Below, in pieces: positions 361 through 15,449 of a stretch of DNA of 16,773 nt. How positions within the stretch are numbered: the first letter of the stretch is position 1; each line of letters opens with the position of its first letter. The stretch comes from Phycisphaerae bacterium (GTDB lineage: Bacteria > Planctomycetota > Phycisphaerae > UBA1845 > UTPLA1). The notes beneath the pieces were generated by a model. It had not been told where the DNA came from. It made no database searches and worked only from the letters and a program-made list of their open reading frames with translations. Both the position numbers and the translations under genes were made by a program. The DNA lies in contig JAFGQA010000109.1 of NCBI GenBank assembly GCA_016935885.1, positions 1 to 16,773 on the forward strand, written 5' to 3'.

Positions 361-1758
361 TTGAGCGTGGTGCGGGCTGTTCGTGCGTTGATCCTGGTAG
401 CGGTCGGTGGCGCCGTGGGTTACTGGCTGTTCGCGGATACCGTGGGGCGATACCGCGTTTCAAGCCGGCCTGCAAACGAGATCCGCTTCTCGTACTGGGG
501 CGGCTTCGACGACCACCTGATGTGGCGGTCCATCATCGAGGCGTTCGAAGTCCACCACCCCGACCTGCGCGTCAAGCCCGAATGGCTTCCGCTGTCGGGT
601 TACAGCACGAAGATGGACCAGCAATTCGTGGCGGGTGATGCCCCGGACGTCATCATGTTCCAGGACGAGCCGTTTGCCAGGTATGCCGCCGAGCAGTTTG
701 CCGATTTGGCCCCCTTCTTGAGGGACGATCCCGAGACGCGCCGGCGCTTGGCGGATTGCTGGCCCACGGCAGTCTCGTCGTTCCAGCAAGGCGGGTCCCT
801 GCGCGGCGTGCCCGTCATGGGTGGCAACGTCTTGATCTACTGCAACCTCGACGCCTTTGAGCGAGCAAGCCGCTTCCATGGAGAGCGGATCACGCCGCCC
901 AGCGGCGGGTGGACGCTGGACGAGTTCGTCGCCACCTGCCTGCGGCTCACCATTGACGAGGATGGCGACGGCGATGTGGATCAGTTTGCCTTCATGCAGC
1001 CGCATTGGGTCTATTACCTGCCATTCATCTGGTCGCACGGCGCCCGGCTCCTGGATGAGGGACGAGAAGGAGGTTCTCGGTTCGGTCCCGATGGTGTCAC
1101 GCTTCTGGAGGAGGGCAGGCCGCGGTGGGCCCTGGTTGGGCCCGAGGCCGTCGCGGCGTTCGCCTTCTACGCCGACCTGCGGCACCGTTGGGGCGTCACG
1201 CCGATGCCGATCGAATATGCCGGGCAGAACTCGGATACCACCTTCCTGTCCGGCCGCGTGGCCATGTGCGTCAATGGGCCGTGGTTTCAGGCGTTTCTGC
1301 GCGAGACGGCGTTGCGGGATCGGTATTGTGTCGTGGGCATTCCGAGCGGGCCGGGCGGGTCGTGGACACGGGTCACATGGGACGCTCTGTGCATCTACGC
1401 CAAGCTGCCGCCGCCACGGCAGGCCCGGGCGTGGCGGTTCATTCGTTTTGTCTTGACGGCCGAGGCGCAGGAGATCTTCGCGGCGCACCAGCGGGCGATT
1501 CCGGCCCGGCGGGCGTGTGCCGAGGCGTACGTTCGCGACGGTGGCGGCCCGGGTTCGCCGGCTGCGGCGTTTGTGGAAGCCATGAAGACCGCTCGGCTTC
1601 AGCCGATCACGCCGGCCTGGATGACGATGGCCCGCGCGGTTCGCACGCACTTGACCTCGGTTATCCTGGATGGCGCCGGCCGACGGTCGCCGGAGGAGGC
1701 CGTTGCCGCGCTGGCGTCGGATCCCGGGATTGTGGAGACCTTTGGGAACACAGACTAA
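361..1758 (+). CDS. ABC sugar transporter, extracellular solute-binding protein (family 1)
   Basis: This is a 465-residue protein of the MalE-like family 1 solute-binding type, which captures sugars outside the membrane for an ABC importer. An N-terminal hydrophobic segment (about residues 8-26) after two arginines acts as signal or anchor. No lipobox cysteine is visible. The mature part starts with the typical FSYWGG strand near residue 43. A DEDGDGDVDQFAF stretch near residue 200 is the acidic loop common in this family. The TTG at 361 was chosen because GGGAG lies 10 bases upstream and a stop (322-324) closes the frame further up; GTG at 367 or 370 are alternatives. A permease gene follows after 93 bases, which supports the transporter role. 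The substrate cannot be read from sequence. Confidence 0.85.
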   Translation: MSVVRAVRALILVAVGGAVGYWLFADTVGRYRVSSRPANEIRFSYWGGFDDHLMWRSIIEAFEVHHPDLRVKPEWLPLSGYSTKMDQQFVAGDAPDVIMFQDEPFARYAAEQFADLAPFLRDDPETRRRLADCWPTAVSSFQQGGSLRGVPVMGGNVLIYCNLDAFERASRFHGERITPPSGGWTLDEFVATCLRLTIDEDGDGDVDQFAFMQPHWVYYLPFIWSHGARLLDEGREGGSRFGPDGVTLLEEGRPRWALVGPEAVAAFAFYADLRHRWGVTPMPIEYAGQNSDTTFLSGRVAMCVNGPWFQAFLRETALRDRYCVVGIPSGPGGSWTRVTWDALCIYAKLPPPRQARAWRFIRFVLTAEAQEIFAAHQRAIPARRACAEAYVRDGGGPGSPAAAFVEAMKTARLQPITPAWMTMARAVRTHLTSVILDGAGRRSPEEAVAALASDPGIVETFGNTD

Positions 1759-1851
1759 CCGCCCGTTGGACAGGAAACGGCTGCGCGGGCTGAAGCGCGC
1801 GGCTCGGCTGTACCCAGAACGATCAGTCTGAGTTCATAGTGGGAAGCCGAA

Positions 1852-2799
1852 ATGGGAATCCGGCAGCAGTCCGGTCAAAGCGGTGTGTGGTTTGCCTCGC
1901 CTTGGCTTGTGGGGCTGGGATTGCTGTATGTTGGCCCCATGCTCGCGGCGGCCGTGGTCGCCATGACCGAGTGGGACGGCCTGTCGGCTTCGACGATGAA
2001 GTGGTCCGGCTGGGCAAACTTCCGAGCCGCGTGGGCCGATCGACACCTGGGCGAGGCCTTGGCCAACAGCATCTGCTACACCGCAATGAACGTGCCGGCC
2101 CAATTGGCTGTTGGCTTGTGCTTGGCACTGTTGGTCAAGCAGTCACGGCGGCGAACGGGGCTTTGGGCGACGCTCTATTACCTGCCGCACGTTCTCGGCG
2201 GCGTGGCCACGATCCTGATCTGGTGGTGGCTGCTCAATCCGCAGGTCGGGCCGATCAACAGGGGTCTTCATTGGATCTTCGATGTGCTGGACGGCCCGTC
2301 GCAGGGGCTTGGCCTCGGCACCACGCGAGGCTGGGAGTTGCCACCGTGGCTCTATTCGCCTGGTTGGGCAAAGCCGTCGCTCGTGCTGATGAACGTCTGG
2401 CAGGCCGGCGGCGGGATGCTGATCTTTCTGGCGGCGCTGTTGCGCGGCGGTGAGGTGTTGCACGAGGCGGCCAAGCTCGACGGCGCCACGACCCTACGCC
2501 GTTTCTGGCACATCACGCTGCCGCAAGTCTCGCCCGCAATCCTGTTTAACGCCGTCACGGGCGTCGTGTTCTCCATGCAGGCTTTCAGCCAACCGTTCCT
2601 GCTTCGAAACTCTCAGCAACAGGACAGCCTGTTGTTCTACGTGCTGTACATGTACCAGGCAGCCTTCGAGCAGCACCGGCTCGGCTACGCCGCGGCGTTG
2701 TCCTGGATACTACTGGCCGTGTTGCTCGCCTTCACGCTCACGGCGGTCCTCCTGACACGCCGCTTCGTGTACTATGACATGGACGAGCCGACGGCCTGA
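1852..2799 (+). CDS. ABC sugar transporter permease (MalF/UgpA-type)
   Basis: This is a 315-residue polytopic inner-membrane permease of the binding-protein-dependent transport family (BPD_transp_1). About six hydrophobic segments are visible, beginning at residues 12-40. The cytoplasmic EAA loop that docks the ATPase is clear: EAAKLDGATTLRRFWHITLP at about residues 205-224, with the conserved GA and a terminal LP. The ATG at 1852 has a GGGAAG about five bases upstream. The protein pairs naturally with the solute-binding protein before it. Sugar importers normally need two permeases and an ATPase; neither follows, because a repeat-rich spacer and an opposite-strand gene come next. The missing parts may be encoded elsewhere, or the locus may be eroded. 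Confidence 0.88.
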   Translation: MGIRQQSGQSGVWFASPWLVGLGLLYVGPMLAAAVVAMTEWDGLSASTMKWSGWANFRAAWADRHLGEALANSICYTAMNVPAQLAVGLCLALLVKQSRRRTGLWATLYYLPHVLGGVATILIWWWLLNPQVGPINRGLHWIFDVLDGPSQGLGLGTTRGWELPPWLYSPGWAKPSLVLMNVWQAGGGMLIFLAALLRGGEVLHEAAKLDGATTLRRFWHITLPQVSPAILFNAVTGVVFSMQAFSQPFLLRNSQQQDSLLFYVLYMYQAAFEQHRLGYAAALSWILLAVLLAFTLTAVLLTRRFVYYDMDEPTA

Positions 2800-3164: not shown

Positions 3165-4340
3165 TCACGCCATCTGGGGGGCGGAAACGTCGATTCTGGC
3201 CTCTGTGGAGACCGTCTCCTTGACGGCGCCGATCACCCGATCGACCTGCTCGTCGGTCAGTCGCGGATAGAGTGGTATGCTGATGGTGCGGTCGCCGATG
3301 GACTCCGCAACCGGAAGATCGCCGCGGCGATGGCCGAAGCGTTTCGCATAGTAGCGCAGGAGGTGTATGGCACGGTAGTTGACAGCGACACCGATGCCGC
3401 GCCTTTGCAGGCCGATCAGGATGTCGTCACGGCGTTCCGGATTCACCCAGATCGTGTACAGATGTCGCGCCGACCACGCGGGCTCCGGGACCGCCGGCAC
3501 GTCGATGTCATCGATCGTCGCGAACGCCTCGTCATACCGGGCGGCGATCTCACGTCGGCGAGCCCATCGGGGATCGAGCCGCTGGATTTGAGGCAAGAGC
3601 AGGGAGGCTCGGACGTCGTCCAGGTTGTACTTCCATCCCAGCTCCTCCATGTCCCAGTGCCGATACCGTTTTCCGTATCGCTCGGCGGCGGTGGATGTGA
3701 TGCCGTGCAGGCTGAGCCTGCGGACCCGCTCGGCTAACAAGGGGTCGTTGGTGGCCATCGCCCCGCCTTCTCCACACGTGATGTTCTTGGTCGCGTAGAA
3801 GGACAGGCACGCCGAGCGGCCGTGGCTTGCGGGGCGAACACGTCCGCGGCGGGCCTCGATGCAGTGCGCACTGTCCTCGATCAAGATCAGGCCCCGATCG
3901 GCGGCGAAGGCACTGAGCGCCTCCATGTCGCACAGCAGGCCGTAGAGGTGGACTGGAATGATCGCGCGCGTTCGGTGCGTAATGTGAGGCTCGACGGTCT
4001 TGGCGCTGACGCATCCCGTGTCCGGTTCGACGTCGGCGAAGACCGGCGTGGCCCCGGCCATCAGCACGGCGTTCGCGGTGGCGACGAAGGTCATGGCGGG
4101 CACGACCACTTCGTCGCCAGGCCCGATGTCCTCCGTGAGGAGGGCGAGGTGCAGGGCGGCAGTGCACGAATCGAGGCAGACGACCTCGGCAACGTTCAGG
4201 TAGCCGGCGAGAGCTTGCTCCGCATCGGCCACCGCCTGGCCAGTCGTGAGGATGGTCCTGTCCAGGGCAGCCGAAATCCGCGCCTTCTCCTCGTCGCCCA
4301 GCGAGTGACGGTAGAACTCAACGCGGTCGTCTCGTGGCAT
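3165..4340 (-). CDS. DegT/DnrJ/EryC1/StrS-family PLP sugar aminotransferase
   Basis: This is a 391-residue member of the ArnB/DegT family, which transfers an amino group (usually from glutamate) onto a keto-sugar nucleotide in the cytoplasm. The PLP-binding lysine is K185 in ATKNITCGEGG, the usual motif of this family. The cofactor-contacting aspartate is D156 in IEDSAH. SCTAALHLAL near residue 59 matches the phosphate-binding loop region. The start at 4340 has GAGG six bases upstream; an in-frame start at 4385 would add 15 residues without family likeness. The length is normal. It is transcribed away from the WbqC/ligase operon across a shared upstream region. The natural partner is the RmlB-like dehydratase at 12233-13264, which would supply a 4-keto sugar. 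The exact sugar is not determined. Confidence 0.93.
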   Translation of the reverse strand: MPRDDRVEFYRHSLGDEEKARISAALDRTILTTGQAVADAEQALAGYLNVAEVVCLDSCTAALHLALLTEDIGPGDEVVVPAMTFVATANAVLMAGATPVFADVEPDTGCVSAKTVEPHITHRTRAIIPVHLYGLLCDMEALSAFAADRGLILIEDSAHCIEARRGRVRPASHGRSACLSFYATKNITCGEGGAMATNDPLLAERVRRLSLHGITSTAAERYGKRYRHWDMEELGWKYNLDDVRASLLLPQIQRLDPRWARRREIAARYDEAFATIDDIDVPAVPEPAWSARHLYTIWVNPERRDDILIGLQRRGIGVAVNYRAIHLLRYYAKRFGHRRGDLPVAESIGDRTISIPLYPRLTDEQVDRVIGAVKETVSTEARIDVSAPQMA

Positions 4341-4441
4341 CACGTGCCTCGGTTGCGTTGCGGCGCGGACGGCCCGGCTGGCCACAAGCCACGGTGCCGT
4401 GATCGGCGGTTCGCTCCGCTTTGAACGCCGCCGCCTCTCCC

Positions 4442-4614: not shown

Positions 4615-4733
4615 GACGCCTATGGGCCGGCGACCGACACGGCCGCACCACAAGGTCCTCCGGACGCGGTCTGACGGACTTCTGCGCAGCCAGCGTATCG
4701 GCCATGGCCATGTGTGCCAGATGGAGCCAACCC

Positions 4734-5492
4734 ATGCCTGCCCAGCCTGTAGCTGAGCTTCCAGACGCCGAGCTTGCCTTGGGACCGGCTGTGGTTTCCG
4801 GCAGGAAGGTGGCCATCCTCCAGTCCAACTACATTCCGTGGAAGGGCTACTTCGACCTGATCGACCAGGTGGACGAGTTCATCCTCTTCGACGACGCCCA
4901 GTTCACAAAGAACGATTGGCGAAACCGGAACAGAATCAAGACGTATCAGGGCCTGAAATGGTTGACCATCCCCGTGCCGGTAAAGGGCAGGTGTCATCGA
5001 AAGATCAAGGACACAGTGGTGAGTGATTCCCACTGGCGCAGCGCGCACTGGAAGACCATCACTCACAACTACGCGCGGGCGAAGCACTTTGCGGCCTACC
5101 GACCGTTCTTCGAGGAACTGTACATGGGGGAGGACGAGCGGCGGCTCAGCAGGATCAACCACCGGTTCATTACCGCGATCTGCGAGATGCTTTCGATCAC
5201 GACCGAGATATCATGGTCCATGGACTACCAGCTCGCCGGGGGAAAGACCGAGCGCCTCGTCGAGCTGTGCAGGCAGGCCGGCGCCACCGAGTATATCTCG
5301 GGACCCGCCGCCAAGGCGTACCTTGACGAGAGCCTGTTTACACAGGAGGGAATGCGAGTGACGTGGATGGATTACTCCTGGTATCCGAGCTATACGCAAC
5401 TCCATCCGCCCTTCGAACATCATGTCAGCATCATTGACTTGATCCTCAACGAGGGAGCCGATGCCGCAAAGTTCGTAAGAAGGTCTCGGTGA
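4734..5492 (+). CDS. WbqC-family protein
   Basis: This is a 252-residue protein of the WbqC-like family (PF08889 type), named for a gene in O-antigen clusters. The family signature starts at about residue 25: KVAILQSNYIPWKGYF, then LFDDAQFTKNDWRNRNRIK. The C-terminal part has the usual Y.QLH.PFEHHVSIIDLILNEG block. The ATG at 4734 has GGAG seven bases upstream. Most family members begin close to the KVAI segment, so the first 24 residues may be an extension, or translation may start at a GTG further in. It is the first gene of a seven-gene operon. The enzymatic role of the family is not settled as far as I recall; being next to an aminoacyl-carrier ligase suggests sugar N-acylation, which is inference. 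Confidence 0.88.
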   Translation: MPAQPVAELPDAELALGPAVVSGRKVAILQSNYIPWKGYFDLIDQVDEFILFDDAQFTKNDWRNRNRIKTYQGLKWLTIPVPVKGRCHRKIKDTVVSDSHWRSAHWKTITHNYARAKHFAAYRPFFEELYMGEDERRLSRINHRFITAICEMLSITTEISWSMDYQLAGGKTERLVELCRQAGATEYISGPAAKAYLDESLFTQEGMRVTWMDYSWYPSYTQLHPPFEHHVSIIDLILNEGADAAKFVRRSR

Positions 5493-5498
5493 TGGATT

Positions 5499-5513
5499 CG
5501 CCCCCGAGGGGCG
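5499..5513. repeat. GC-rich hairpin in operon gap
   Basis: CGCCCC (5499-5504) and GGGGCG (5508-5513) form a 6-base stem with loop CGA, seven bases after the WbqC stop. No T-run follows, so read-through into the next gene is expected. It might tune mRNA stability. Confidence 0.35.
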
Positions 5514-5562
5514 GTTCTGCGACCGACAGGGCCGTGCCGCCGCGACGCAGGAGAGACCACAC

Positions 5563-6720
5563 ATGCCGACGCTGGATTACAAGTTGCACACACGCCTAGA
5601 TGATGCGGTCAGGGATTTTGTCGTGTCTTCGATTCAACGCAGCTATGCCACGAATCGGATTGAGATTGCAGGCGACAGGTTGACCGTGGGCTTTGACGAG
5701 AACGTCTCGCCCACGGCCTTCTCCGGGCTGGTGAAGCGGCTCCTTTACATCTCCAGGAGCATCAACAAGGACCTGCTGTACGAAAACAGTGTCGATCATC
5801 CATACGGCGAAGACCCCATTGTTCACCTATTGGAAAGCAGGGATGTTATCAAGGTCGCCGACGGCCTGTATCTCTACCAGGGCGAGTTCTGGAGAGTGTT
5901 CCAAGCCTTGCATGATTATGTCAAACGGCTTGCTCGGGAGTACGAGGCGGTCGAGCAGGAGTATCCCGTGCTCTGGCCGATCGACCTGTTTCGGAAGATT
6001 AACTACTTCGCGGAGTTCCCTCAGCAGGCAATCCTCTCAACGAGCGTGAAAGGCTCGTTTGAAGACAAAGAGAGCTTCGCTCAGCGTTACGCCACCGGAG
6101 AGGACTACGAATCCGTCGCCGTGACGGAACACATGGCGGACTGCCGCCACGGCCTGCAACCAGCGGTGTGCGACCTCTGTTACTACACGCTGAGCAACGA
6201 AACGGATTATCAGAATACGATCTACACGACCTACAACAAGGTGTTTCGCAACGAGTACTCGACAACCGACAGCCTGGACCGACTCCTGGCATTCTCGGTT
6301 CGAGACATCATGTTTGTGGGTGACAGGGATTTCGTTCTCGACGTCAGGCAGCGCCTGATCGAGGACCTCATCGAGTTCCTTCGGATCCTCGATCTGAACT
6401 GCCGCATCGAGACGGCGAGCGATCCCTTCTTCACCAACGACTCGGCCATGAAGGCCGTCTTCCAGAATACCGCGCGCCTGAAATACGAGCTCCTGGCCCG
6501 GTTGAACCACTCCGGTGTGTACATTGCCGTCGGCTCCATCAACCTACACCTGGACTTCTTTGGAAGGGCCTTCAACATACGGTTACCAGACGGCACGTTT
6601 GCTCATTCGGGGTGCATCGGGATCGGGTTCGAGCGCCTTGCGTACGCCCTCTACTGCCAGTACGGGCCCGACCTGGGCGGCTGGCCGACGGAATTGCGAA
6701 AGGCGCTGGGATTGGCATGA
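5563..6720 (+). CDS. amino acid:[carrier protein] ligase (class II aaRS-like)
   Basis: This is a 385-residue class II synthetase-like protein of the family that activates an amino acid with ATP and loads it on a carrier protein instead of tRNA. Motif 2 is visible as FRNE (228-231), followed by RDIMFVG (247-253). Motif 3 is GIGFERL (353-359), preceded by C351. PAVCDLCYY (200-208) resembles the PAxC segment of the family. Known members bind zinc through Cys, Glu and Cys; here C203 and C351 fit, and D248 seems to sit at the Glu position. No tRNA-binding domain is present. The N-terminal half is longer than in the rhizobial enzymes as I remember them. The carrier gene follows 37 bases downstream, the expected arrangement. 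AGGAG precedes the ATG. The amino acid is unknown (glycine or alanine in studied homologues). Confidence 0.85.
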   Translation: MPTLDYKLHTRLDDAVRDFVVSSIQRSYATNRIEIAGDRLTVGFDENVSPTAFSGLVKRLLYISRSINKDLLYENSVDHPYGEDPIVHLLESRDVIKVADGLYLYQGEFWRVFQALHDYVKRLAREYEAVEQEYPVLWPIDLFRKINYFAEFPQQAILSTSVKGSFEDKESFAQRYATGEDYESVAVTEHMADCRHGLQPAVCDLCYYTLSNETDYQNTIYTTYNKVFRNEYSTTDSLDRLLAFSVRDIMFVGDRDFVLDVRQRLIEDLIEFLRILDLNCRIETASDPFFTNDSAMKAVFQNTARLKYELLARLNHSGVYIAVGSINLHLDFFGRAFNIRLPDGTFAHSGCIGIGFERLAYALYCQYGPDLGGWPTELRKALGLA

Positions 6721-6757
6721 GCCAGGGGTACCGCGAAACGTCAAAGGGAATCCGAGA

Positions 6758-7009
6758 ATGGCAACCCGAGTGAACAATTTCGAGGGTCGCCTGCTGCGGG
6801 TGTTCGACCGGACCGTGGGGCGACGATCTGGAGGCAACGCCATCGTGGCGACGGCGACGCCTGAGTGGGACTCGCTGACACACATCAAGCTCGTGATGGA
6901 GTTGGAGAACGAGTTTCACATCGAAGTCCCCCCGGGTGACATTCAGAAGTTGTTCAGTGAATTCGGCGTCGTGTTGAACTACGTGCGCGACGCCGTTGGC
7001 GATGATTGA
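6758..7009 (+). CDS. acyl carrier protein-like aminoacyl carrier
   Basis: This is an 83-residue carrier protein. The phosphopantetheine site is S39 in EWDSLTHIKLV, with the DSL motif at the start of helix II, followed by MELENEFHIEVP as in ordinary carrier proteins. The short N-terminal helix and the length fit the family. Placement right after the ligase and before the acyltransferase suggests it carries an amino acid as thioester, not a growing fatty acid. The start at 6758 was chosen because upstream in-frame starts would run inside the ligase gene. The stop (7007-7009) lies one base before the next ATG, so translation is probably coupled. A phosphopantetheinyl transferase must come from elsewhere in the genome. 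Confidence 0.9.
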   Translation: MATRVNNFEGRLLRVFDRTVGRRSGGNAIVATATPEWDSLTHIKLVMELENEFHIEVPPGDIQKLFSEFGVVLNYVRDAVGDD

Positions 7010-7010
7010 C

Positions 7011-7664
7011 ATGGACGTCCTCGTTTACGGTGCCGGGCTGCTGGCCAGACAGCTTCATCACTACATAAAGGTGTACATGGGGGATCGCCTGAACCTCCTT
7101 GGGTTCATTGATGATGCGAAGCCGGAAGGCGCCGTGGTCGTGGAAGACGTGTGCACCGTGGGGTCTCTTGACGCGATGAGCGCATCCGGGAAGTACTCGC
7201 CGGAGGATGTCCGGCTGGTGTTCGCCATCGGCTATTCGGATATGCTCGCGCGCAGCCAGGCGTTCGAGCGTGCCAAGCGGATGGGCTACCGGTTTGAGCG
7301 GGTCCTTCACCCGAAGGCGAACATCGAAGAAGGCGTGCGACTCGGAGAGGGCGTCGCGGTGCTTCAAGGCGCGCTGGTTGATCAGCGCGTGACGATAGGC
7401 GACATCACTCTTGTGGATATGGGAACCATCGTGTGCGAGAACTGCAAGATCGGCGCCAACAACTTCATCGCCGCGGGCACGACCATCGGCGGGAACGTGA
7501 CCATCGGCGCCAATAACTTCATCGGCCTGAATTCCACGGTTGCAGACGCCGTGTCCATCGGCAGTAACAACTGGATCAACGCCCAGTCGTTGGTATACAA
7601 AGACCTTGGTGACAATACCAGGCTCGTCGAGCTGCACGAGCAGCGCCTCGTGGAAATGAAGTAA
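7011..7664 (+). CDS. NeuD/PglD-like hexapeptide-repeat acyltransferase, atypical active site
   Basis: This is a 217-residue protein of the sialic-acid O-acetyltransferase NeuD / PglD type. It has an N-terminal Rossmann-like part (VLVYGAG, residues 3-9, then FIDD at 32-35) that binds the sugar nucleotide, and a C-terminal left-handed beta-helix with IG-x4 hexapeptides from about residue 105 to 195. Family members usually have a catalytic His in the first coil turn. Here the aligned stretch reads TIVCENCKIG, so Cys142 sits in its place, and the later HI is FI. The ATG at 7011 is one base past the carrier stop; ATG 7002 or TTG 6996 are alternatives. Position behind a carrier gene suggests the donor may be an acyl or aminoacyl carrier instead of acetyl-CoA; this is inference. 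Confidence 0.85.
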   Translation: MDVLVYGAGLLARQLHHYIKVYMGDRLNLLGFIDDAKPEGAVVVEDVCTVGSLDAMSASGKYSPEDVRLVFAIGYSDMLARSQAFERAKRMGYRFERVLHPKANIEEGVRLGEGVAVLQGALVDQRVTIGDITLVDMGTIVCENCKIGANNFIAAGTTIGGNVTIGANNFIGLNSTVADAVSIGSNNWINAQSLVYKDLGDNTRLVELHEQRLVEMK

Positions 7665-7666
7665 TC

Positions 7667-8656
7667 ATGGACTGCGTGGACCTAAAAAGGCAGCTCGAGC
7701 CCCACATCCACCTGTATGACTTTCCTACGGATGTGTTGGTCGAGACCATCGCCTACTGCAACTTGAAGTGTATCATGTGTCCCCAGTCCAAGCTGACGCG
7801 GCCAACGGGCGTGATGAGCTCCGAACTGTGGAAGAAGACCATCGACGAAATCGCCGAGAAGTCACCGACGACGCGGATCTGGCCCGCCTTGATGGGCGAG
7901 CCACTTCTCGACAAGCAGATCTTCGCTCGGCTCAAGTATGCGAAGGACAAAGGAATCCGGCGCACAAACCTGAACTCGAACCTGCAATGCTTCAGCGAGA
8001 CCATGCTGGACGACTTCTTTGCTTGCGGCGTTGATAGTCTCTACGTCGGCATCGATGCCTTCACACGCGATACCTACGCCAGGATCAGAGTCGGTGGCAA
8101 GCTCGACGTGCTCATGCGGAAGCTGGCTTTGATTCTGAATGAACGGGATAGGCGTGGGACACATAGGCCTGAGGTCTGCGTGCAGTTTATTGTCATGGAC
8201 GAGAACGAGCATGAGGAGGAACCGTTCGTCGACTACTGGAAAGCATCCGGACTTGACGTCAACATCAAGGTGCGCCCGCGGCTGGACTGGTCTTCGGGCG
8301 TGCCGGCATGGTCAAGGATCCGCAACGTCGGCGTGGAGGACCGTGTTCCATGCACATGGCTGTTACGGCAGATGGGGATTTACTGGGACGGTCGGGTGCC
8401 GCAGTGTGACGCAGACTGGGACGGCATCACCCAGTACGGTAACATCAATGACTCGACGATCGAGGAAATCTGGCTGAACCGGATTCGCCCGTTGCAGCGG
8501 AAACATCTGGACGGCGCATTCGGCGCCTCGCCTCTATGTCCCACGTGTGATGAATGGAAGGCGGGGCTGTCGCAGTTGCTCAACGTCGAGAAGCGGCGCG
8601 TGCGCACGGCGACAGAGCCGGTCTCGGAGGAGTTGGCACGACAGAGTGGCGCGTAA
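7667..8656 (+). CDS. radical SAM/SPASM-domain protein
   Basis: This is a 329-residue radical SAM enzyme. The cluster motif is C31-x3-C35-x2-C38 (AYCNLKCIMCPQ), followed by a GEPL element at 77-80 that contacts SAM. The C-terminal region has C229, C247 and a C291-x2-C294 pair, with GNIND..IEEIW between them. This fits a SPASM or twitch-type domain holding one auxiliary Fe-S cluster. Such enzymes modify peptides, sugars or carrier-bound groups; the substrate here is unknown. No precursor-peptide gene is visible nearby, which argues against a typical RiPP system. The ATG lies two bases after the acyltransferase stop, so it is part of the same operon. Confidence 0.92.
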   Translation: MDCVDLKRQLEPHIHLYDFPTDVLVETIAYCNLKCIMCPQSKLTRPTGVMSSELWKKTIDEIAEKSPTTRIWPALMGEPLLDKQIFARLKYAKDKGIRRTNLNSNLQCFSETMLDDFFACGVDSLYVGIDAFTRDTYARIRVGGKLDVLMRKLALILNERDRRGTHRPEVCVQFIVMDENEHEEEPFVDYWKASGLDVNIKVRPRLDWSSGVPAWSRIRNVGVEDRVPCTWLLRQMGIYWDGRVPQCDADWDGITQYGNINDSTIEEIWLNRIRPLQRKHLDGAFGASPLCPTCDEWKAGLSQLLNVEKRRVRTATEPVSEELARQSGA

Positions 8657-8681
8657 GTCCTCGCGCCGAAGGCAGTCGGTT

Positions 8682-9455
8682 ATGCGTTACATCTCGCTCG
8701 ATACACCGAATACGAGCTGTATGCACAGGGCCTTCCTTGAAATGCTAGAGGGCCGCAGCATCGGAACCTTCATCGAAGTTGGGCCTGGATGCGGGCACCT
8801 GTCACAGCTCCTGTGCTCCCGGGAGGCGGTTGGCGTGGGCATCGATTTCTCCCCCGTGGCGATCAGCGGATTAAAGGGAAATCTGGCCGAGGAGATCGCA
8901 CGTGGGCGCTACTCCGTGATCGAAGCGGACTTCATGAAGACGGACCTACACCTTCAGGTGGACCTGGTGTTCAGCATGTTGGTGATGGAGCACGTCGCGG
9001 ACGACATGATGTTCTTGCGCAGAATGAAAATGGCGACGAGGCAAAGCGGTATTGTCTTGACCGCCGTTCCGGGGCGAAAGGACAAATGGGGAATTGACGA
9101 CGAGTTGTATGGCCACATTCGTCGATACGACCGTGCGGATCTGTTTGCCCTATTTCGCGATGCTGGCTTCGCGGACGTGCACGTCCGGTCGATCGCCGTT
9201 CCCATCTCGAACCTCCTGTTCGGTCTCACCAATTGGATCTCCGAGCGGAGCCGAGCACGCGCGAGAAGGGAATTGCCGCTGGCGGAACGAACCAAACTCA
9301 GTGGCCAAAAGGACATTCCATACAAGAAGGTCTTTCCACCATGGTTCCGGCTAGTATTGAACGAGTACACCTACTGCCCGTTTCACATATTACAGAGATT
9401 GTTCTACAAGACGAATCTCGGGCTTGTGATGATTGCCAGCGGCCGACGACCGTAA
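8682..9455 (+). CDS. class I SAM-dependent methyltransferase
   Basis: This is a 257-residue Rossmann-fold methyltransferase. Motif I is FIEVGPGCGHLS (30-41), and VGVGIDFSP gives the acidic residue after beta-2. FSMLVMEHV is the post-motif segment that is typical of the Methyltransf_11/12/25 group. RRYDRADLFALFRDAGF near residue 150 is the common C-terminal helix of ubiE-like enzymes. The ATG at 8682 follows the radical SAM stop by 25 bases; longer in-frame starts lie inside that gene and add an arginine-rich, unrelated segment. The substrate is unknown; the operon suggests a sugar, lipid-linked glycan or carrier-bound group. Confidence 0.85.
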   Translation: MRYISLDTPNTSCMHRAFLEMLEGRSIGTFIEVGPGCGHLSQLLCSREAVGVGIDFSPVAISGLKGNLAEEIARGRYSVIEADFMKTDLHLQVDLVFSMLVMEHVADDMMFLRRMKMATRQSGIVLTAVPGRKDKWGIDDELYGHIRRYDRADLFALFRDAGFADVHVRSIAVPISNLLFGLTNWISERSRARARRELPLAERTKLSGQKDIPYKKVFPPWFRLVLNEYTYCPFHILQRLFYKTNLGLVMIASGRRP

Positions 9456-9464
9456 AGAGGGCTG

Positions 9465-10286
9465 ATGGATCGACTTTCCAGACGGGTGTTTTCAGAAGCG
9501 ATGTTGCTGTTTAGAAGGACCATTCCGACGCCGGAGGAAGTCAGGCAACGCTACCAGACTGGTCCTTGGGCCGGGAACTACATCAAATTCAAGGCGAATG
9601 ATAACGCGAACTACCGGTATTTGTTCTGCTATTTGGACATGGTGGCTGATCTAGTAGTCGAACGAAGCCCGAGGCGGGTCCTGGATCTTGGATGTGGTTC
9701 GGGGCCGATTCTCCGTCGTCTGCGGGAGCGGCTGCCCAAAACGGAACTGGTCGGACTAGACATCTCGATGCAACTCCTCAAGGAGGCACTACCGAATCCT
9801 GCCGTGCGAGGCGATTGTCTAGCCCTGCCGTTCAAGGATGCAGCATTCGATATTGTCGTAAATGTTGCCGTGAGTGAATTGTTCAGTGACGCGGACTTCA
9901 TCGAAATTCTGCAGGAAGCCAAGCGGGTTACACGCCCTGGCGGATGCCTGGTGATCCAGTACCGCAATCCGTACTCGTTCTGGGAGCCTTATTGGTGGTT
10001 TTACAGATACCCGTACTATCAGAACGCGTACACGCGTGCGAGGCTCAATCGCCTCGCGAGGCGGCTCTCACTGCCCATCGAGCACTTTCAGGGCACGTAC
10101 CTGGCGGCTCCGCCCGTGGTTTACCGCAATCACCGGACGTTTTATCGGGGTCTCATGCCGGAATGGCTGCTGGGCATTATTCGTCGACTCGATATCGAGA
10201 TGCTTGCTCGTGCCTTTCCCTTTCTGTGTCGCCATTTCATTGTCGTTCACAATGTTCCGAACCGACGAATCCCTCGGCAAGCTTGA
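9465..10286 (+). CDS. class I SAM-dependent methyltransferase (second in operon)
   Basis: This is a 273-residue methyltransferase. Motif I is RVLDLGCGSG (71-80), followed by LVGLDIS, then DCLALPFKDAAFDIVVN, the usual motif II/III pattern. The C-terminal third is rich in Tyr, Trp and Arg (SFWEPYWWFYRYPYY) and may be an amphipathic or membrane-near substrate lobe. AGAGG lies four bases before the ATG, nine bases after the previous stop. The last 50 bases overlap the end of the opposite-strand methyltransferase gene. It is the last gene of the plus-strand operon. It is not a close repeat of the preceding methyltransferase beyond the shared fold. Confidence 0.85.
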   Translation: MDRLSRRVFSEAMLLFRRTIPTPEEVRQRYQTGPWAGNYIKFKANDNANYRYLFCYLDMVADLVVERSPRRVLDLGCGSGPILRRLRERLPKTELVGLDISMQLLKEALPNPAVRGDCLALPFKDAAFDIVVNVAVSELFSDADFIEILQEAKRVTRPGGCLVIQYRNPYSFWEPYWWFYRYPYYQNAYTRARLNRLARRLSLPIEHFQGTYLAAPPVVYRNHRTFYRGLMPEWLLGIIRRLDIEMLARAFPFLCRHFIVVHNVPNRRIPRQA

Positions 10287-11133
10287 TGGCGCGCAGTACG
10301 TAATGCCAACAGAACAGGCGGGTCGGCCAACTGCGGCACGCACGGCGCTCAACCGCCAGGTAGAGTCGATCCAGGGGGCGAATCATAAACGCTGGCAGAA
10401 TCGTGAATCGCCTCAGATCCGTTGTGTAGAAACCGGTAAATGGAGGGCAGGAATGCGTGCCGGAACTACTGTCGGGCCTGCATCCGGCGCGCCGGACCAT
10501 GGCTTTCAGTTCCCTTGGAGTGAAGTAGTGCATCTTGCCGGCAGGCCTGATACCAAGAAACTGCATCGCACGGAAGCAGGCGTGCCAATGAACGGACAAC
10601 GCATTGCACACGTCGATATACAGTTGACCACCGGGCCGCAGCACGCGCACCAATTCGCGTAGCGCGCCTTCCCGATCGGTCAAGCCTTCGAGTACCGACA
10701 GGTTCATCACGACATCGAAGGTGTTGTCCGGGTAACCGATATCCGTGACGGATTGGCGCGCGACATCTTCGGCTCGCAACCCCTCCTCGCGAATCGCTTG
10801 GTGGGTGCACGCGATCATCGTTTCGCAGTAGTCGATGGCCCAGACCCTCGCCCCGTCTTTCAGCGCGAGGACAGTGTAGTCTCCGTGCCCGCATCCGGCA
10901 TCCAGGACCTTCGCGTTCGGCTGAATGTGAAAGAACTCATGATAGTGCGATGCTCGCGCCTCGCGCAGTACGGCCCACTCGGGTGCCTTCTTCCTGGCGG
11001 CGATTCTCGTCGCGTAGTCATCCCACTGGGCAGCGTGGGCATACCCACCCTCGTCGTCCTGAACAGACCTGGGCGTTGGGGCGCGTGGTCGAGGCGAGGT
11101 CCCACGGTCGCTTAGGCCCTCTAAGAGGGTCAT
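10237..11133 (-). CDS. class I SAM-dependent methyltransferase (minus-strand operon)
   Basis: This is a 298-residue methyltransferase with motif I KVLDAGCGHGDY (75-86), VWAIDYCETMI after it, and YPDNTFDVVMNLSVLEGL for motif II/III. The ATG at 11133 overlaps the stop of the upstream glycosyltransferase as ATGA, and GGAG lies nine bases before it, so the start is well supported and translation is probably coupled. It is the last gene of a four-gene minus-strand unit. Its 3' end overlaps the convergent methyltransferase by 50 bases. A polar N-terminal extension of about 35 residues precedes the fold. The substrate is not known. Confidence 0.87.
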   Translation of the reverse strand: MTLLEGLSDRGTSPRPRAPTPRSVQDDEGGYAHAAQWDDYATRIAARKKAPEWAVLREARASHYHEFFHIQPNAKVLDAGCGHGDYTVLALKDGARVWAIDYCETMIACTHQAIREEGLRAEDVARQSVTDIGYPDNTFDVVMNLSVLEGLTDREGALRELVRVLRPGGQLYIDVCNALSVHWHACFRAMQFLGIRPAGKMHYFTPRELKAMVRRAGCRPDSSSGTHSCPPFTGFYTTDLRRFTILPAFMIRPLDRLYLAVERRACRSWPTRLFCWHYVLRAIKLAEGFVGSEHCERQ

Positions 11134-12218
11134 CGCAAGTGGCTCCCAGCAGTCGGTTTGGCGCGCCTACCCAGGTTGATGCGACGCGTGCAAAAGTACA
11201 GCGGCCTGCGTTTGGCTTCGGTGTATGACAGGCCCACGTATTCTCCCAGGATTGCCAGCACCGCAAACTGCAAGCCGTGCAGGACGAGGAGTGCAATGAT
11301 CAGCGATGCCCACCCGCTGACGCCGCACCCGTGCGTGAAATAGCCGTATAGGACCCACAATACACCAACCACGCACCCGAGAAAGGCCAGACACGAGCAA
11401 ATGGCACTGATGCGAAGCGGGGCGAGCGAGAACGACGTGAGCCCGGTGAGGCCGAGCTTCACCAGCCCGGCCCAGGAGTAGTTTGTGCGACCGCGTCGCC
11501 TTTCGTCCAGCTCGATCTCGATCTCCGCGCTGCGGTAGCCCATCCAGGGCATCAGGTAGGCCATGTATCTGTTACGCTCCGGGATCCGGCGCAACGACTC
11601 GGCCATTTCGCGGCTGAAGAGGCGGAAGGTGGCCCGGTTGGAGCACGAACCAAGGCCGACCACGCGATTCAGCACTCGTACAAAGGCCAGGCTGATCATG
11701 GAGCGCGGCCATGCCTGTCGCCGGCCCGTACGCGTGGCGTAAACCACGTCAAATCCTTCGCGATACTTGGCCACCAGGCGCGGGATGTCCTCCGGCCGCT
11801 CCTGAAGGTCGCTGTCCATCCACACTACCATCTCGCCACGGGCCGTGTCGATCCCCGCCGCGGCAGCGATCTGCTGGCCGAAGTTACGGCTCAGTACGAT
11901 CACCTTGATCCGATCATCGCGACGGGCTTGCTCCTCGAGCATAGACACGCCGCCATCCGTGCTGCCGTCGTCGACGAAGACGAGTTCGTAGGACAGCCGC
12001 TCCGCCTCGAGCGTCGAGCGAAGACGATCGATCAACTCCGGGATGCTGTCCTGTTCATTACGAAACGGAAGAACGATGCTGATGTCAGGACGGTCGCGAT
12101 CCGGGGGATTCTCGTTGTCAACGGGCTCCGGCGGATAACGCAGCCCCGCAGGCTCGAACATGCCATAGCCCCGGACACCCACGTCCGCGATGGTCTGGCT
12201 CGATGCGGTCACGATCAC
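11130..12218 (-). CDS. GT2 polyprenyl-phosphate glycosyltransferase (DPM1/GtrB/ArnC-like)
   Basis: This is a 362-residue family 2 glycosyltransferase that puts a sugar on a polyprenyl phosphate at the cytoplasmic membrane face. The GT-A domain begins DISIVLPFRNE (about 45-55), with VDDGSTDGG (82-90) for the nucleotide and WMDSDLQERPEDIP (133-146) as the DxD-type site. LDERRRGRTNYSW is the usual segment before the membrane part. Two C-terminal membrane helices follow, then ILGEYVGLSYTEAKRRPLY as in GtrB/ArnC relatives. The GTG at 12218 was chosen because GAGG lies just upstream and it falls 14 bases after the stop of the preceding gene; a longer frame to 12374 would run into that gene. The neighbouring membrane protein could use the lipid-linked sugar. 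Confidence 0.9.
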   Translation of the reverse strand: MIVTASSQTIADVGVRGYGMFEPAGLRYPPEPVDNENPPDRDRPDISIVLPFRNEQDSIPELIDRLRSTLEAERLSYELVFVDDGSTDGGVSMLEEQARRDDRIKVIVLSRNFGQQIAAAAGIDTARGEMVVWMDSDLQERPEDIPRLVAKYREGFDVVYATRTGRRQAWPRSMISLAFVRVLNRVVGLGSCSNRATFRLFSREMAESLRRIPERNRYMAYLMPWMGYRSAEIEIELDERRRGRTNYSWAGLVKLGLTGLTSFSLAPLRISAICSCLAFLGCVVGVLWVLYGYFTHGCGVSGWASLIIALLVLHGLQFAVLAILGEYVGLSYTEAKRRPLYFCTRRINLGRRAKPTAGSHLR

Positions 12219-12232
12219 GGGCCCTCGGATTG

Positions 12233-13264
12233 CTAGTGCAGAACCTTCTGCCCACTGGGCAACGAGAGTTCCACCTGTTTCATCCAGTCCAGCTTTCGCC
12301 ACCACGCTTCGTTGGCCTCGTACCACTCGATGGTCCGCGACAGCCCCTTGTCCAAGTCCGTCGTGGCCTTCCATTTGAGCAGGCGGGACGCCTTCTCTGT
12401 CGCCGCGATGTGCTTATCGACCTGGCCCGGACGGTTCTCGACGTACTGAAGCAGCGACTCGCTGCCGCCGGTGATGTCGAGGATCTTTCGGGCAATCGTC
12501 AACACATCGGTGGCGACGCCTGTTCCGATGTTGACGACCTCACCAAGGATCGCGTCGAGTGGGGCTTCCAACACGGCAATCAGCGCGCGGCAGGTGTCAT
12601 CCACGTAGACCCAATCGCGCGCGGCGCTGCCGTCGCCGTGTATGGTGAGCGGCTCGCCGGTCAACGCGCTGGTTACGAAGCGTGGTACGCACTTCTCCAA
12701 GTGCTGTCGTGGACCGTATTGATTAAAGGGCCGGACGATCACTGCCGGGATGCCGTAGGTCTTCCAGTAGGAGTACACCAGACGGTCCGCGCCACACTTG
12801 GCCGACGCATACGGCGACATCGGTATAAGCGGATGTTCGCCTTCGTCCATTGGCTCGCTCACGGCGGTGCCATACACTTCCGACGTGGAGATGTGCACGA
12901 AGCGCTTGATGCGCTTGCGGTGGCGCAGCACCTGGTTGGCGATCACGTGAGTCCCCATTACGTCCGTCTGGAAGAAGACCCAGTTGTCGAAGATGCTGCG
13001 GGCGACGTGCGTTTCGGCCGCAAAGTGTACGACCGTTTCTACTTGGTCCATTAGATCGGAGACAAGATCGGCGTTACACACGTTGCCATACCAGAAGTGG
13101 AATCGCGGGGCGCTGCGAATGTCATCCGACAGGTTCTCCGGGTCCCCCGCATACGTTAGCGCATCCAACACGTAAACCTGTGCCTTCGGGTAGCGCCGCA
13201 TCACGGTGCGGACGAAGTTCGATCCGATGAATCCTGCACCGCCAGTGATTAATATCGAATCCAT
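12233..13264 (-). CDS. RmlB-like NAD-dependent NDP-sugar 4,6-dehydratase/epimerase
   Basis: This is a 343-residue extended SDR enzyme. The NAD motif GGAGFIG is at 8-14, and LDALTYAGDPENL (33-45) is strongly RmlB-like. The catalytic YxxxK is Y152/K156 in SPYASAK. The active-site triplet reads TSE (127-129) in HISTSEVYG; dTDP-glucose dehydratases have TDE, whereas GDP-mannose dehydratase and LegB-type enzymes have TSE. NQYGPRQ and GDGSAARDWVYVDD are usual family elements. It would make a 4-keto-6-deoxy sugar, the substrate type for the DegT aminotransferase. The ATG at 13264 matches family starts; an upstream frame to 13405 lies in the preceding gene. The sugar nucleotide is not fixed by sequence, and an epimerase role is possible. 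Confidence 0.88.
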   Translation of the reverse strand: MDSILITGGAGFIGSNFVRTVMRRYPKAQVYVLDALTYAGDPENLSDDIRSAPRFHFWYGNVCNADLVSDLMDQVETVVHFAAETHVARSIFDNWVFFQTDVMGTHVIANQVLRHRKRIKRFVHISTSEVYGTAVSEPMDEGEHPLIPMSPYASAKCGADRLVYSYWKTYGIPAVIVRPFNQYGPRQHLEKCVPRFVTSALTGEPLTIHGDGSAARDWVYVDDTCRALIAVLEAPLDAILGEVVNIGTGVATDVLTIARKILDITGGSESLLQYVENRPGQVDKHIAATEKASRLLKWKATTDLDKGLSRTIEWYEANEAWWRKLDWMKQVELSLPSGQKVLH

Positions 13265-13275
13265 GATCTGACGCC

Positions 13276-15168
13276 CTACAATGGCTGGTCCATCAAGACT
13301 GCTGATTGTTCCTCGGCGCCGGTTAGCACGACGCCCTCGTCCTTTGGCGACCAGATTTCCAGTGGTCCGATTCGCTTTGTGAGCGCGTAGTTCGCATCGA
13401 CCCACGCGTTGATCGGCCGTCGTTCGGGATCGTCACTGGAGTAGGTCTCGTGCGTGTATGCCTTCTTGCTTTCGCTGACACCGAAGTCGGGCCATTCGCG
13501 GCTGGGGAACACCGTGTTGCGTATGACGAGTTCCGGTATCCGCCCGCGCTGAATCATGTCGTCCAGCACCGCCTGCTCCAACGAGGCGGGCCGATTCTCC
13601 AAGATCCACGTGATGAAAGGGGCCGGTCGTGTATCCGTTGCGAAATACAGCAGCGGAACATCATAGTATGCCAGGATCAGTCCGCCCGGCTCGACCCGCT
13701 CCTGTACGTACTCGACGAGCTTGTCAATCAGTTCGACACGCTGCGGCGCGGAAGTAATGCCAGCCAACCGCGCCGACTTGAAGGGCACGTGACAGTCCGG
13801 CCGGGAGAATGCATACAGGTCTCTGTATGAGCCGTACACCAAATACCAGGACGCTGATGCCAGAACGACGGCGGCCACGATGCTACCGGGGACCACCCGG
13901 TTCAGCACGGGCTCGACGAACCATGCCTTCCCAAGACACGGCAAGTGCCCGGGCAACTCGATGACTAGAATAACCGACAGCGCAATGAGGTAGTGTGCCC
14001 CGCGGATGGCCGCGCTCGTGCCGGTGTTTGATCCGACCATTGACAAGAGGACAATGAAGACCGAGGTCAAATAGAGAAACGTGCGATCCATGGCCGCCCG
14101 CCGCTGTGGCTCGTTCTGGTCGTGCCGCGGCCAGAAGGCAATCAAGCCCGCTGTCACACCCACAAACCCGAACCCCAACAGGCGCGTTTCGCAGCCGCTT
14201 TGCACATGTAGGTAGTGTGTGTAGGTGGCAGCTACGCCCAAGGCCATGAAGACGCGCAGCCAACGCGGTAGGCGCGCCAAGGTGTTGCTCATCAGCAGCG
14301 CGCAAAGGGCCAGGCAGTTCGCGGAGATGACAGCGGCAGCAACGGACTCTCGCATGCCCTCCCAGAAGAAGCCCAAGCGTGTCGCGCCGCCATATCCCGA
14401 AAAGGCGAGCCGAAACCGCTGCACCACGACATCTCCGAGCCCTGCATAGTGGATCAGGCCCGCAACCAGGGCCGTGGTGGCAACGAAAGCAAGCACGTAC
14501 ACAGTGGTCGATTGGAGTGCCTCGCGCCAGCGCGATCGGGCCACATGTGCCGATAACAGCGCCACGGCGGGAAGTGCGACCATGCCGACGTGGGGCAGCC
14601 GCGACGTGGCGGCCGCCACGCCCAACACGCCGGCAATCCCCGCGACTGCATACCGTGTGCCCCGGCGGTGGCTGTTCATGGCCGCCCAGAAAGTCGCAAT
14701 GCTCAATATCGCGAATGTGGCGGGGACCGTGTGATAGGCGAGAGCTTGAGTAAACCAGATCTTGACAATAGGCATCGATACTGCCGTGCCGACCAACGCC
14801 TTCAGCGGTGTCGTCACGCGGGCCAACACGAGATACACCGCCACAAACGCGACGAACTGCACGATGCTGTCGACAATACGCAGATCAAGAAGCGTTGCCT
14901 CCGGCTCCAACCGGAACAGCCAGGAGGCGTAGTATTCCGCCAGGGAGGCCACGTTCCCCGATGCGTCAAGGAATGGTCGATCGCTGTGGGCCAACCGATG
15001 GGCGACCGTGGCCGACCGGCCGAAGTCCGTGAGGTCGCAGCCGTGCCGGATGGTCGGCGCCTCGATCGCCAGCCAGCACGCCCCCAACAGCAGCAAGCCC
15101 AGTCGTGTCTGGAACCGGATTCGGTGCCGTTCAGTCAATGGGTGCTTCTTGGCTTGGCGGGATGACAT
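13276..15168 (-). CDS. polytopic membrane protein, possible GT-C glycosyltransferase
   Basis: This is a protein of about 630 residues with a hydrophobic helix near residues 20-35, then a polar periplasmic loop containing CDLTDFGRSATVAHRL and FLDASG, and many further membrane segments. A soluble C-terminal domain of about 180 residues follows the last helix (around SWYLVYGSYRDLYAF). This layout fits the GT-C glycosyltransferase class, which uses polyprenyl-phosphate sugars on the outer face, but I recognise no exact family. The stop lies 11 bases before the dehydratase start, so it leads the minus-strand operon. The start is uncertain: ATG 15168 gives a compact basic N-terminus, while ATG 15231 or GTG 15273 would extend it by 21 or 35 residues. 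None has a strong ribosome site. Confidence 0.7.
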   Translation of the reverse strand: MSSRQAKKHPLTERHRIRFQTRLGLLLLGACWLAIEAPTIRHGCDLTDFGRSATVAHRLAHSDRPFLDASGNVASLAEYYASWLFRLEPEATLLDLRIVDSIVQFVAFVAVYLVLARVTTPLKALVGTAVSMPIVKIWFTQALAYHTVPATFAILSIATFWAAMNSHRRGTRYAVAGIAGVLGVAAATSRLPHVGMVALPAVALLSAHVARSRWREALQSTTVYVLAFVATTALVAGLIHYAGLGDVVVQRFRLAFSGYGGATRLGFFWEGMRESVAAAVISANCLALCALLMSNTLARLPRWLRVFMALGVAATYTHYLHVQSGCETRLLGFGFVGVTAGLIAFWPRHDQNEPQRRAAMDRTFLYLTSVFIVLLSMVGSNTGTSAAIRGAHYLIALSVILVIELPGHLPCLGKAWFVEPVLNRVVPGSIVAAVVLASASWYLVYGSYRDLYAFSRPDCHVPFKSARLAGITSAPQRVELIDKLVEYVQERVEPGGLILAYYDVPLLYFATDTRPAPFITWILENRPASLEQAVLDDMIQRGRIPELVIRNTVFPSREWPDFGVSESKKAYTHETYSSDDPERRPINAWVDANYALTKRIGPLEIWSPKDEGVVLTGAEEQSAVLMDQPL

Positions 15169-15449
15169 CAATACATGATCGTGGCAGTGGGTGCGACTTC
15201 GGCCCCGCCCTCTTGTCTCGACGGGCGTCATATCGAATTGCCGGCTGAGACGGTTGGCATAGCCTTGTCTCACAATGGGTTGCGCACTGAGCCATCGTTG
15301 AGGATCTCGCCTGCGGGTCCAGGCGTTCGGGCATCGTGACCCGCTGCTCCACGTGGAATTGCGTTGACCCGCTCACTCGACTGCCGCGAAACCAGCCAGT
15401 TTCAGCTTCAGTTAGTATCGGCACTTGCTCGGATCCCGATTGACTGATC

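What the first reader, a model, noticed from the sequence alone, without database searches (positions are those of the whole stretch)
4734..10286. Possible carrier-protein-dependent aminoacyl decoration pathway for a surface glycan
One operon joins a WbqC-family protein, a class II synthetase-like amino acid:[carrier protein] ligase, its carrier, a NeuD/PglD-like acyltransferase, a radical SAM/SPASM enzyme and two methyltransferases, with gaps of only 1-70 bases. A sugar aminotransferase is divergent to it and a 4,6-dehydratase/GT2 operon converges on it. The simplest model is that an amino acid is activated as aminoacyl-S-carrier, transferred to an amino sugar, then changed by radical and methyl chemistry. 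Family calls are from sequence; the pathway is inference. I do not know of a described system with exactly this set.
Basis: partly seen in the sequence, partly recalled or inferred. Interest (0 to 1): 0.8.

Follow-up and report, generated by a model that had tools for sequence, protein, structure and literature searches.

The report
Carrier-bound amino acid decorating a sugar
A bacterial gene set that probably charges an amino acid onto a small carrier protein and attaches it to a surface sugar; its uncharacterised WbqC protein, found in many bacteria, is the likely amide-bond maker.

The parts
4734..5492 (+). WbqC-family protein (ORF open from 4704); HUP/BshC-like fold by model; proposed amide-forming enzyme
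5563..6720 (+). class II synthetase-like amino acid:[carrier protein] ligase, in a clade separate from the Rhizobium type
6758..7009 (+). carrier protein, EWDSL phosphopantetheine site
   Evidence: EWDSL in 5 of 5
7011..7664 (+). NeuD/PglD-like hexapeptide protein without the catalytic His
7667..8656 (+). radical SAM/SPASM enzyme; nearest solved relative BtrN (weak, partial)
8682..9455 (+). methyltransferase 1 (found only in the window among 5 loci)
9465..10286 (+). methyltransferase 2 (also in L002)
3165..4385 (-). DegT sugar aminotransferase, nearest solved relative ArnB
10237..11133 (-). methyltransferase 3
11130..12374 (-). GT2, polyprenyl-phosphate glycosyltransferase-like (GtrB/ArnC); the first ~90 residues of the ORF are probably not translated (inference: the domain starts at residue 97)
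12233..13405 (-). dTDP-glucose 4,6-dehydratase-like; likely start near 13264 (inference: the domain starts at residue 50)
13276..15273 (-). polytopic membrane protein, possible final glycosyltransferase (position and hydropathy only)
   Evidence: model too poor

Best explanation
A carrier-protein-dependent route that N-acylates a 4-amino-4,6-dideoxyhexose with an amino acid and sends the product to the surface on a polyprenyl phosphate. Steps: (1) the class II ligase adenylates an amino acid and loads it on the carrier; (2) the dehydratase and the ArnB-like DegT enzyme make an NDP-4-amino sugar; (3) WbqC, a HUP-fold protein whose HIGH position reads W-x-G-Y, forms the amide between the carrier-bound aminoacyl group and the sugar amine, with the His-less NeuD-like protein as a sugar-nucleotide-binding partner; (4) the ArnC/GtrB-like GT2 moves the sugar to undecaprenyl phosphate and a membrane protein, perhaps 13276-15273, uses it outside. 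The radical SAM enzyme and methyltransferases tailor the sugar or the acyl group; which one is open. Shown: families, order, conservation, catalytic-residue states, predicted WbqC fold. Inferred: every reaction, the amino acid, the roles of WbqC and NeuD-like, the final glycan.
Against: Foldseek gave no match at E 0.001 for WbqC, and profile comparison with BshC is not significant (11.7% probability over 85 columns; 3.9%, where 2 of the 20 BshC rows were antisense ORFs). BshC activity had not been shown in vitro as of a 2015 review. A NeuD-like protein with an acid at the His position (window, L001, L002) might still catalyse. WbqC is on the strand opposite to the ligase in L003 and L004. Of 20 WbqC regions chosen, a carrier profile found a carrier in 1 and the window ligase matched in none, so WbqC does not always need this donor. 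L001 shows no GT2 in the fetched flank. No amino acid specificity was derived.
Confidence: 0.55

Rival explanations
1. The NeuD-like protein is the N-aminoacyltransferase, using the reactive aminoacyl thioester without the usual His base; WbqC does something else, such as shaping the sugar or glycan.
For: Its solved relatives PerB, PglD and VioB are N-acetyltransferases of 4-amino sugars (roles partly recalled); it is present in 5 of 5 ligase loci.
Against: The His altered in PDB entries 4eaa and 4eab is E, E, D, A, A in the 5 loci; L003 and L004 have no acid there either.
Confidence: 0.2
2. A secreted amino-sugar or aminocyclitol metabolite made with butirosin-like logic, not a surface glycan.
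For: Radical SAM nearest BtrN (weak); an amino acid on a carrier, a DegT enzyme and methyltransferases are familiar from such pathways (recalled).
Against: ArnC/GtrB-like GT2 in 4 of 5 loci and the polytopic protein in 2 of 5 point to a lipid-linked sugar; none of the ten proteins scanned hit PF14399, the family of the butirosin acyltransferase BtrH (accession).
Confidence: 0.12
3. A mosaic glycan locus: ligase, carrier, WbqC and NeuD-like form one module, while radical SAM and methyltransferases belong to an unrelated sugar path that happens to sit in the same operon.
For: Radical SAM and methyltransferases gave no hit in L003 and L004; radical SAM occurs near WbqC elsewhere without ligase or carrier hits.
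Against: Gaps of 2-25 bases from neuD to the second methyltransferase in the window; the same order neuD-rsam-mt2 in L002.
Confidence: 0.13

Closest known systems
Bradyrhizobium amino acid:[carrier protein] ligases (Bll0957) and the Rhizobium ligase set
   Same: Class II synthetase core with matching Cys/Glu/Cys; a carrier gene beside the Rhizobium ligase
   Different: Window clade is separate (100/99 support among 37 rows) and has WbqC and NeuD-like genes; the Rhizobium set has acyl-CoA dehydrogenase, DUF1839 and GH2, for which the 5 window-clade loci gave no hit
Prediction of Iyer and co-workers 2010 (PMC2922099, note added in proof)
   Same: Amino acid on a carrier ligated to an amino group of a cell-surface sugar derivative (passage read)
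   Different: They name another tightly linked protein (Atu2574) as amide ligase; the paper is not among the 12 that hold the word WbqC
BshC and MshC cysteine ligases of bacillithiol and mycothiol
   Same: Amino acid joined to an amino sugar; BshC is the closest modelled fold
   Different: No significant sequence similarity; the passages read name no carrier protein for them
Arn pathway for 4-amino-4-deoxy-arabinose
   Same: ArnB-like and ArnC-like enzymes; N-acylated sugar put on undecaprenyl phosphate (pathway recalled)
   Different: No ArnA formyltransferase domain among the genes scanned; the dehydratase matches only the dehydrogenase part of the ArnA model, far below cut-off
Butirosin side chain (BtrI/BtrJ/BtrH) and Dlt D-alanylation
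   Same: Carrier-bound amino acid transferred to an aminoglycoside or polymer (BtrH passage, DltA/DltC passage; rest recalled)
   Different: Other activating and transferase families (recalled)

Membership tests
amino acid:[carrier protein] ligase | homologous class II catalytic core | tested here: met
   Bll0957 3mey E 9.6e-30 over residues 74-384
amino acid:[carrier protein] ligase | conserved Cys/Glu/Cys at the positions of the Bll0957 metal site (role recalled) | tested here: met
   alignment; invariant in 26 of 26
amino acid:[carrier protein] ligase | NCBIfam NF005479 curated cut-off | tested here: not met
   164.7 against 357 bits: a relative outside the curated equivalog
amino acid:[carrier protein] ligase | loads an amino acid on a carrier | not testable with these tools
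   needs enzyme assay
phosphopantetheine carrier protein | DSL serine site | tested here: met
   EWDSL in 5 of 5; but no Pfam PP-binding hit at 0.001 for the window carrier
NeuD/PglD/PerB N-acetyltransferase | left-handed hexapeptide domain | tested here: met
   PF00132, PerB E 6.8e-20; TIGR03570 cut-off not reached (137 of 160.8 bits)
NeuD/PglD/PerB N-acetyltransferase | catalytic His | tested here: not met
   E, E, D, A, A in 5 loci
WbqC family PF08889 | profile over cut-off | tested here: met
   272.4 against 21.3 bits
BshC | same overall fold | tested here: met
BshC | sequence profile similarity | tested here: not met
   HHalign probability 11.7% and 3.9%; no PF10079 hit
Arn pathway | ArnB-like and ArnC-like enzymes | tested here: met
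   (similarity only; ArnC and ArnB NCBIfam cut-offs not reached)
Arn pathway | ArnA formyltransferase | tested here: not met
   no such domain among the scanned genes
Arn pathway | ArnT-type GT-C transferase | tested here: inconclusive
   13276-15273 is polytopic, no family hit, poor model
Rhizobium-type ligase set | acyl-CoA dehydrogenase, DUF1839 and GH2 beside the ligase | tested here: not met
   no hit in window and L001-L004
BtrN-type radical SAM dehydrogenase | radical SAM core with auxiliary-cluster domain and sugar/cyclitol substrate | tested here: inconclusive
   PF04055 + PF13186; BtrN only 1.4e-6 over 65 residues; substrate unknown

The most novel reading that the evidence does not exclude
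WbqC (PF08889; found in 38 of 120 Pseudomonadota and 22 of 79 Planctomycetota genomes sampled) is a family of amino-sugar N-(amino)acyl amide-forming enzymes with a BshC-like HUP fold and a degenerate HIGH site. It works with interchangeable activating enzymes (class II ligase plus carrier here, an ANL ligase fused to WbqC plus carrier in L112, possibly an ATP-grasp enzyme in L110) and takes the place of ArnA's formyl transfer in Arn-like pathways.
Probability: 0.4. Interest if true: 0.78.

Novelty: new variant of a known kind. Interest (0 to 1): 0.6.

Why it matters
If right, it gives a testable function to WbqC, found in 60 of the 199 Pseudomonadota and Planctomycetota genomes sampled and for which my two paper searches listed no functional study by title or abstract. 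It turns a 2010 prediction into a concrete enzyme set, and it would show a class II synthetase-derived ligase and a class I synthetase-like (HUP) fold working in one non-ribosomal amide-forming pathway.

Tried and rejected
Canonical NeuD acetylation: rejected as default because the catalytic His is missing. SerRS function: the serine-tRNA ligase models match only from about residue 190 or 213 of 518 on, far below cut-off. WbqC as BshC homologue by sequence: not supported. GT-C fold for 13276-15273: model pLDDT 48, not interpreted. General coupling of WbqC to carriers: the PF00550 scan of 50 genomes could not answer it, since its listing was cut and the family misses carriers of the window's type; a carrier profile found one carrier in the 20 WbqC regions, in L112. 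Phage or plasmid spread: 1 phage-collection record and 87 plasmid records, all under 60% identity and none covering 80% of the query; no viral-contig relative among 36 pattern matches. Wider taxon sampling for the ligase: matches of window-clade strength (E 1e-160 or better) in 1 of 392, 1 of 398, 2 of 397, 1 of 224 and 1 of 228 genomes (samples overlap), all in the four genomes already known; the weaker hits that I followed fall outside the clade in the tree, one (G532, L023) was not followed.
Full report
What is there. The window carries seven same-strand genes at 4704(4734)-10286, separated by 70, 37, 1, 2, 25 and 9 bases: WbqC, a class II synthetase-like ligase, a carrier, a NeuD-like protein, a radical SAM/SPASM enzyme and two methyltransferases. 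A DegT aminotransferase runs away from them. Converging on them is a minus-strand set: third methyltransferase, GT2, dehydratase and a polytopic protein. No whole genome is held for the window. Its nearest ligase kin among named genomes are Phycisphaerae, so the source is most likely a planctomycete (inference).

The ligase. Solved relatives are the Bradyrhizobium amino acid:[carrier protein] ligase entries (Bll0957, E 9.6e-30) and then two SerRS sequences. The protein search scored 419 relatives at E 0.001 or better and listed 120; I aligned 26 including the window. In a tree of 37 rows the window and the 15 other rows of its type form one clade (support 100/99), apart from the Rhizobium type (3 rows) and the rest (18 rows); three of the outside rows have long branches and an unsure place. 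Cys203, Glu231 and Cys351 are invariant in 26 of 26.

Conservation of the neighbourhood. The genome-contig scan matched 13 stretches, of which 4 encode a relative: L001 and L002 (Planctomycetota), L003 (Roseobacter) and L004 (Pseudomonadales). WbqC, carrier and NeuD-like genes lie near the ligase in 4 of 4; in L003 and L004 WbqC is on the opposite strand. DegT is found in 3 of 4 (L004 is a 5.3 kb contig) and GT2 in 3 of 4 (not in L001). L002 also has the radical SAM gene, mt2, mt3, the dehydratase and the polytopic protein at 62-80% identity, but no mt1 hit. L001 has a second DegT-like gene between ligase and carrier; after its neuD an ORF starts with about 19 residues resembling the radical SAM start and runs into N (by eye). 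L003 and L004 have instead, between ligase and carrier, proteins 65% identical to each other with a sub-threshold 2OG-oxygenase match (E 0.0012 and 0.0021). Control: 20 regions (6.5-20 kb, 19 genomes) round ligases of the other groups have no WbqC, NeuD, DegT or GT2 hit; two have a weak carrier hit and one a weak methyltransferase hit. Carriers do accompany other ligases: Pfam finds one in L032 and L038, and L035, L036 and the named Rhizobium plasmid region L140 have carrier, acyl-CoA dehydrogenase, DUF1839 and GH2. So ligase plus carrier is the general core, WbqC plus NeuD-like is special to this clade. The control used window proteins at E 1e-4, so distant homologues could be missed.

NeuD-like. 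Nearest solved relative is PerB perosamine N-acetyltransferase (E 6.8e-20). Entries 4eaa and 4eab differ from 4ea7 at one His in the aligned stretch (Asn and Ala there), which marks the residue; that column is Glu in the window, and E, D, A, A in L001, L002, L003, L004. In NeuD-like proteins from six other WbqC-linked genomes (L100, L101, L106, L107, L112, L067) it is His in 6 of 6; a weak partial hit in L108 was not examined. Those six are more distant relatives (L112's is 20% identical to the window's over the aligned part), so the contrast is between subfamilies, not close pairs.

WbqC elsewhere. It is common: 38 of 120 Pseudomonadota and 22 of 79 Planctomycetota genomes. In 48 WbqC loci outside the window clade, DegT lies within 1.5 kb in 17, GT2 in 8, radical SAM in 4, NeuD in 3, dehydratase in 3, mt2 in 3, mt3 in 1. 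In 41 control loci (20 BshC-family loci, 21 other-group ligase loci) DegT, radical SAM, NeuD and dehydratase have no hit, GT2 2, mt2 and mt3 10 each, mt1 2, carrier 2 (the control is not matched for glycan loci, and the methyltransferase queries are clearly unspecific). Of 20 wider regions, chosen by me, L103 and L105 have the compact set WbqC, dehydratase, GT2, DegT. L104, L110 and L116 have a radical SAM gene next to WbqC and L102 has two about 3 kb away; L113 has a weak partial one. Neither the carrier profile nor the window ligase finds anything in these. L112 has WbqC fused in frame to an ANL enzyme (PF08889 + PF00501 + PF13193), followed by carrier, SDR, methyltransferase, NeuD-like, methyltransferase and GT2 and DegT. 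L110 has WbqC, radical SAM, methyltransferase and an ATP-grasp protein. P0137 joins a hexapeptide stretch to WbqC. WbqC thus keeps company with different carboxylate-activating enzymes and, often, 4-amino-sugar genes.

Mechanism. DegT nearest ArnB, GT2 nearest GtrB and ArnC, dehydratase nearest dTDP-glucose 4,6-dehydratase. The simplest reading is an Arn-like route in which ArnA's formyl transfer is replaced by aminoacyl transfer from the carrier, with WbqC as amide former. The reactions, the amino acid, the place of radical SAM and methyl chemistry and the final glycan are inference.

What is known. PMC2922099 (passages read) already proposed that a SerRS paralogue plus carrier ligates an amino acid to an amino group of a cell-surface sugar derivative, and named Atu2574 as the amide ligase. 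The gene set described there (ACP, Rossmann-fold redox enzyme, uncharacterised protein, glycosidase) looks like the Rhizobium set; that Atu2574 is DUF1839 was not tested. The term search for WbqC listed 12 papers, and 'WbqC family/WbqC-like' 4; by titles and abstract starts none studies its function, and none was opened. Searches for carrier-protein ligases and for carrier-dependent sugar acylation (two returned nothing) listed no paper that by title or abstract start treats this gene set; the library lacks most subscription papers, and the two papers sought by id (Mocibob 2010, VanDuinen 2015) are not held.

Noticed in passing
L112:3337-10423 (-): WbqC fused in frame to an ANL AMP-binding enzyme (8048-10423), then carrier, SDR, methyltransferases, NeuD-like and GT2, with a DegT gene nearby: a parallel version of the system with another activating enzyme.
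   Followed up: partly
P0137 (protein search hit): A hexapeptide stretch joined to WbqC in one predicted protein, a possible fusion of NeuD-like and WbqC functions; could be a start-site error.
   Followed up: no
L102, L104, L110, L116: WbqC next to or near radical SAM/SPASM genes with no ligase or carrier hit, sometimes two radical SAM genes; L110 adds a PylC-like ATP-grasp protein.
   Followed up: partly
window 13276-15273 (-): Polytopic protein without any Pfam or NCBIfam family; only 4 relatives in the protein search; invariant acidic residues D35 and D38 in the 5 sequences, near the first predicted membrane helix.
   Followed up: partly
L001:11157-12239: A second, distant DegT-like gene lies between ligase and carrier in this relative.
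   Followed up: no
L032:6429-9365: A ligase of another group beside a carrier, a GNAT protein and an aminoglycoside 3-N-acetyltransferase-like protein: perhaps a different aminoacyl-carrier pathway.
   Followed up: no
phage-collection record MT835751.1:13470-14312: An unannotated record from human faeces encodes a distant (27%) ligase relative.
   Followed up: no
window 361-2799 (+): Sugar ABC transporter binding protein and permease upstream of the aminotransferase, apparently unrelated.
   Followed up: no
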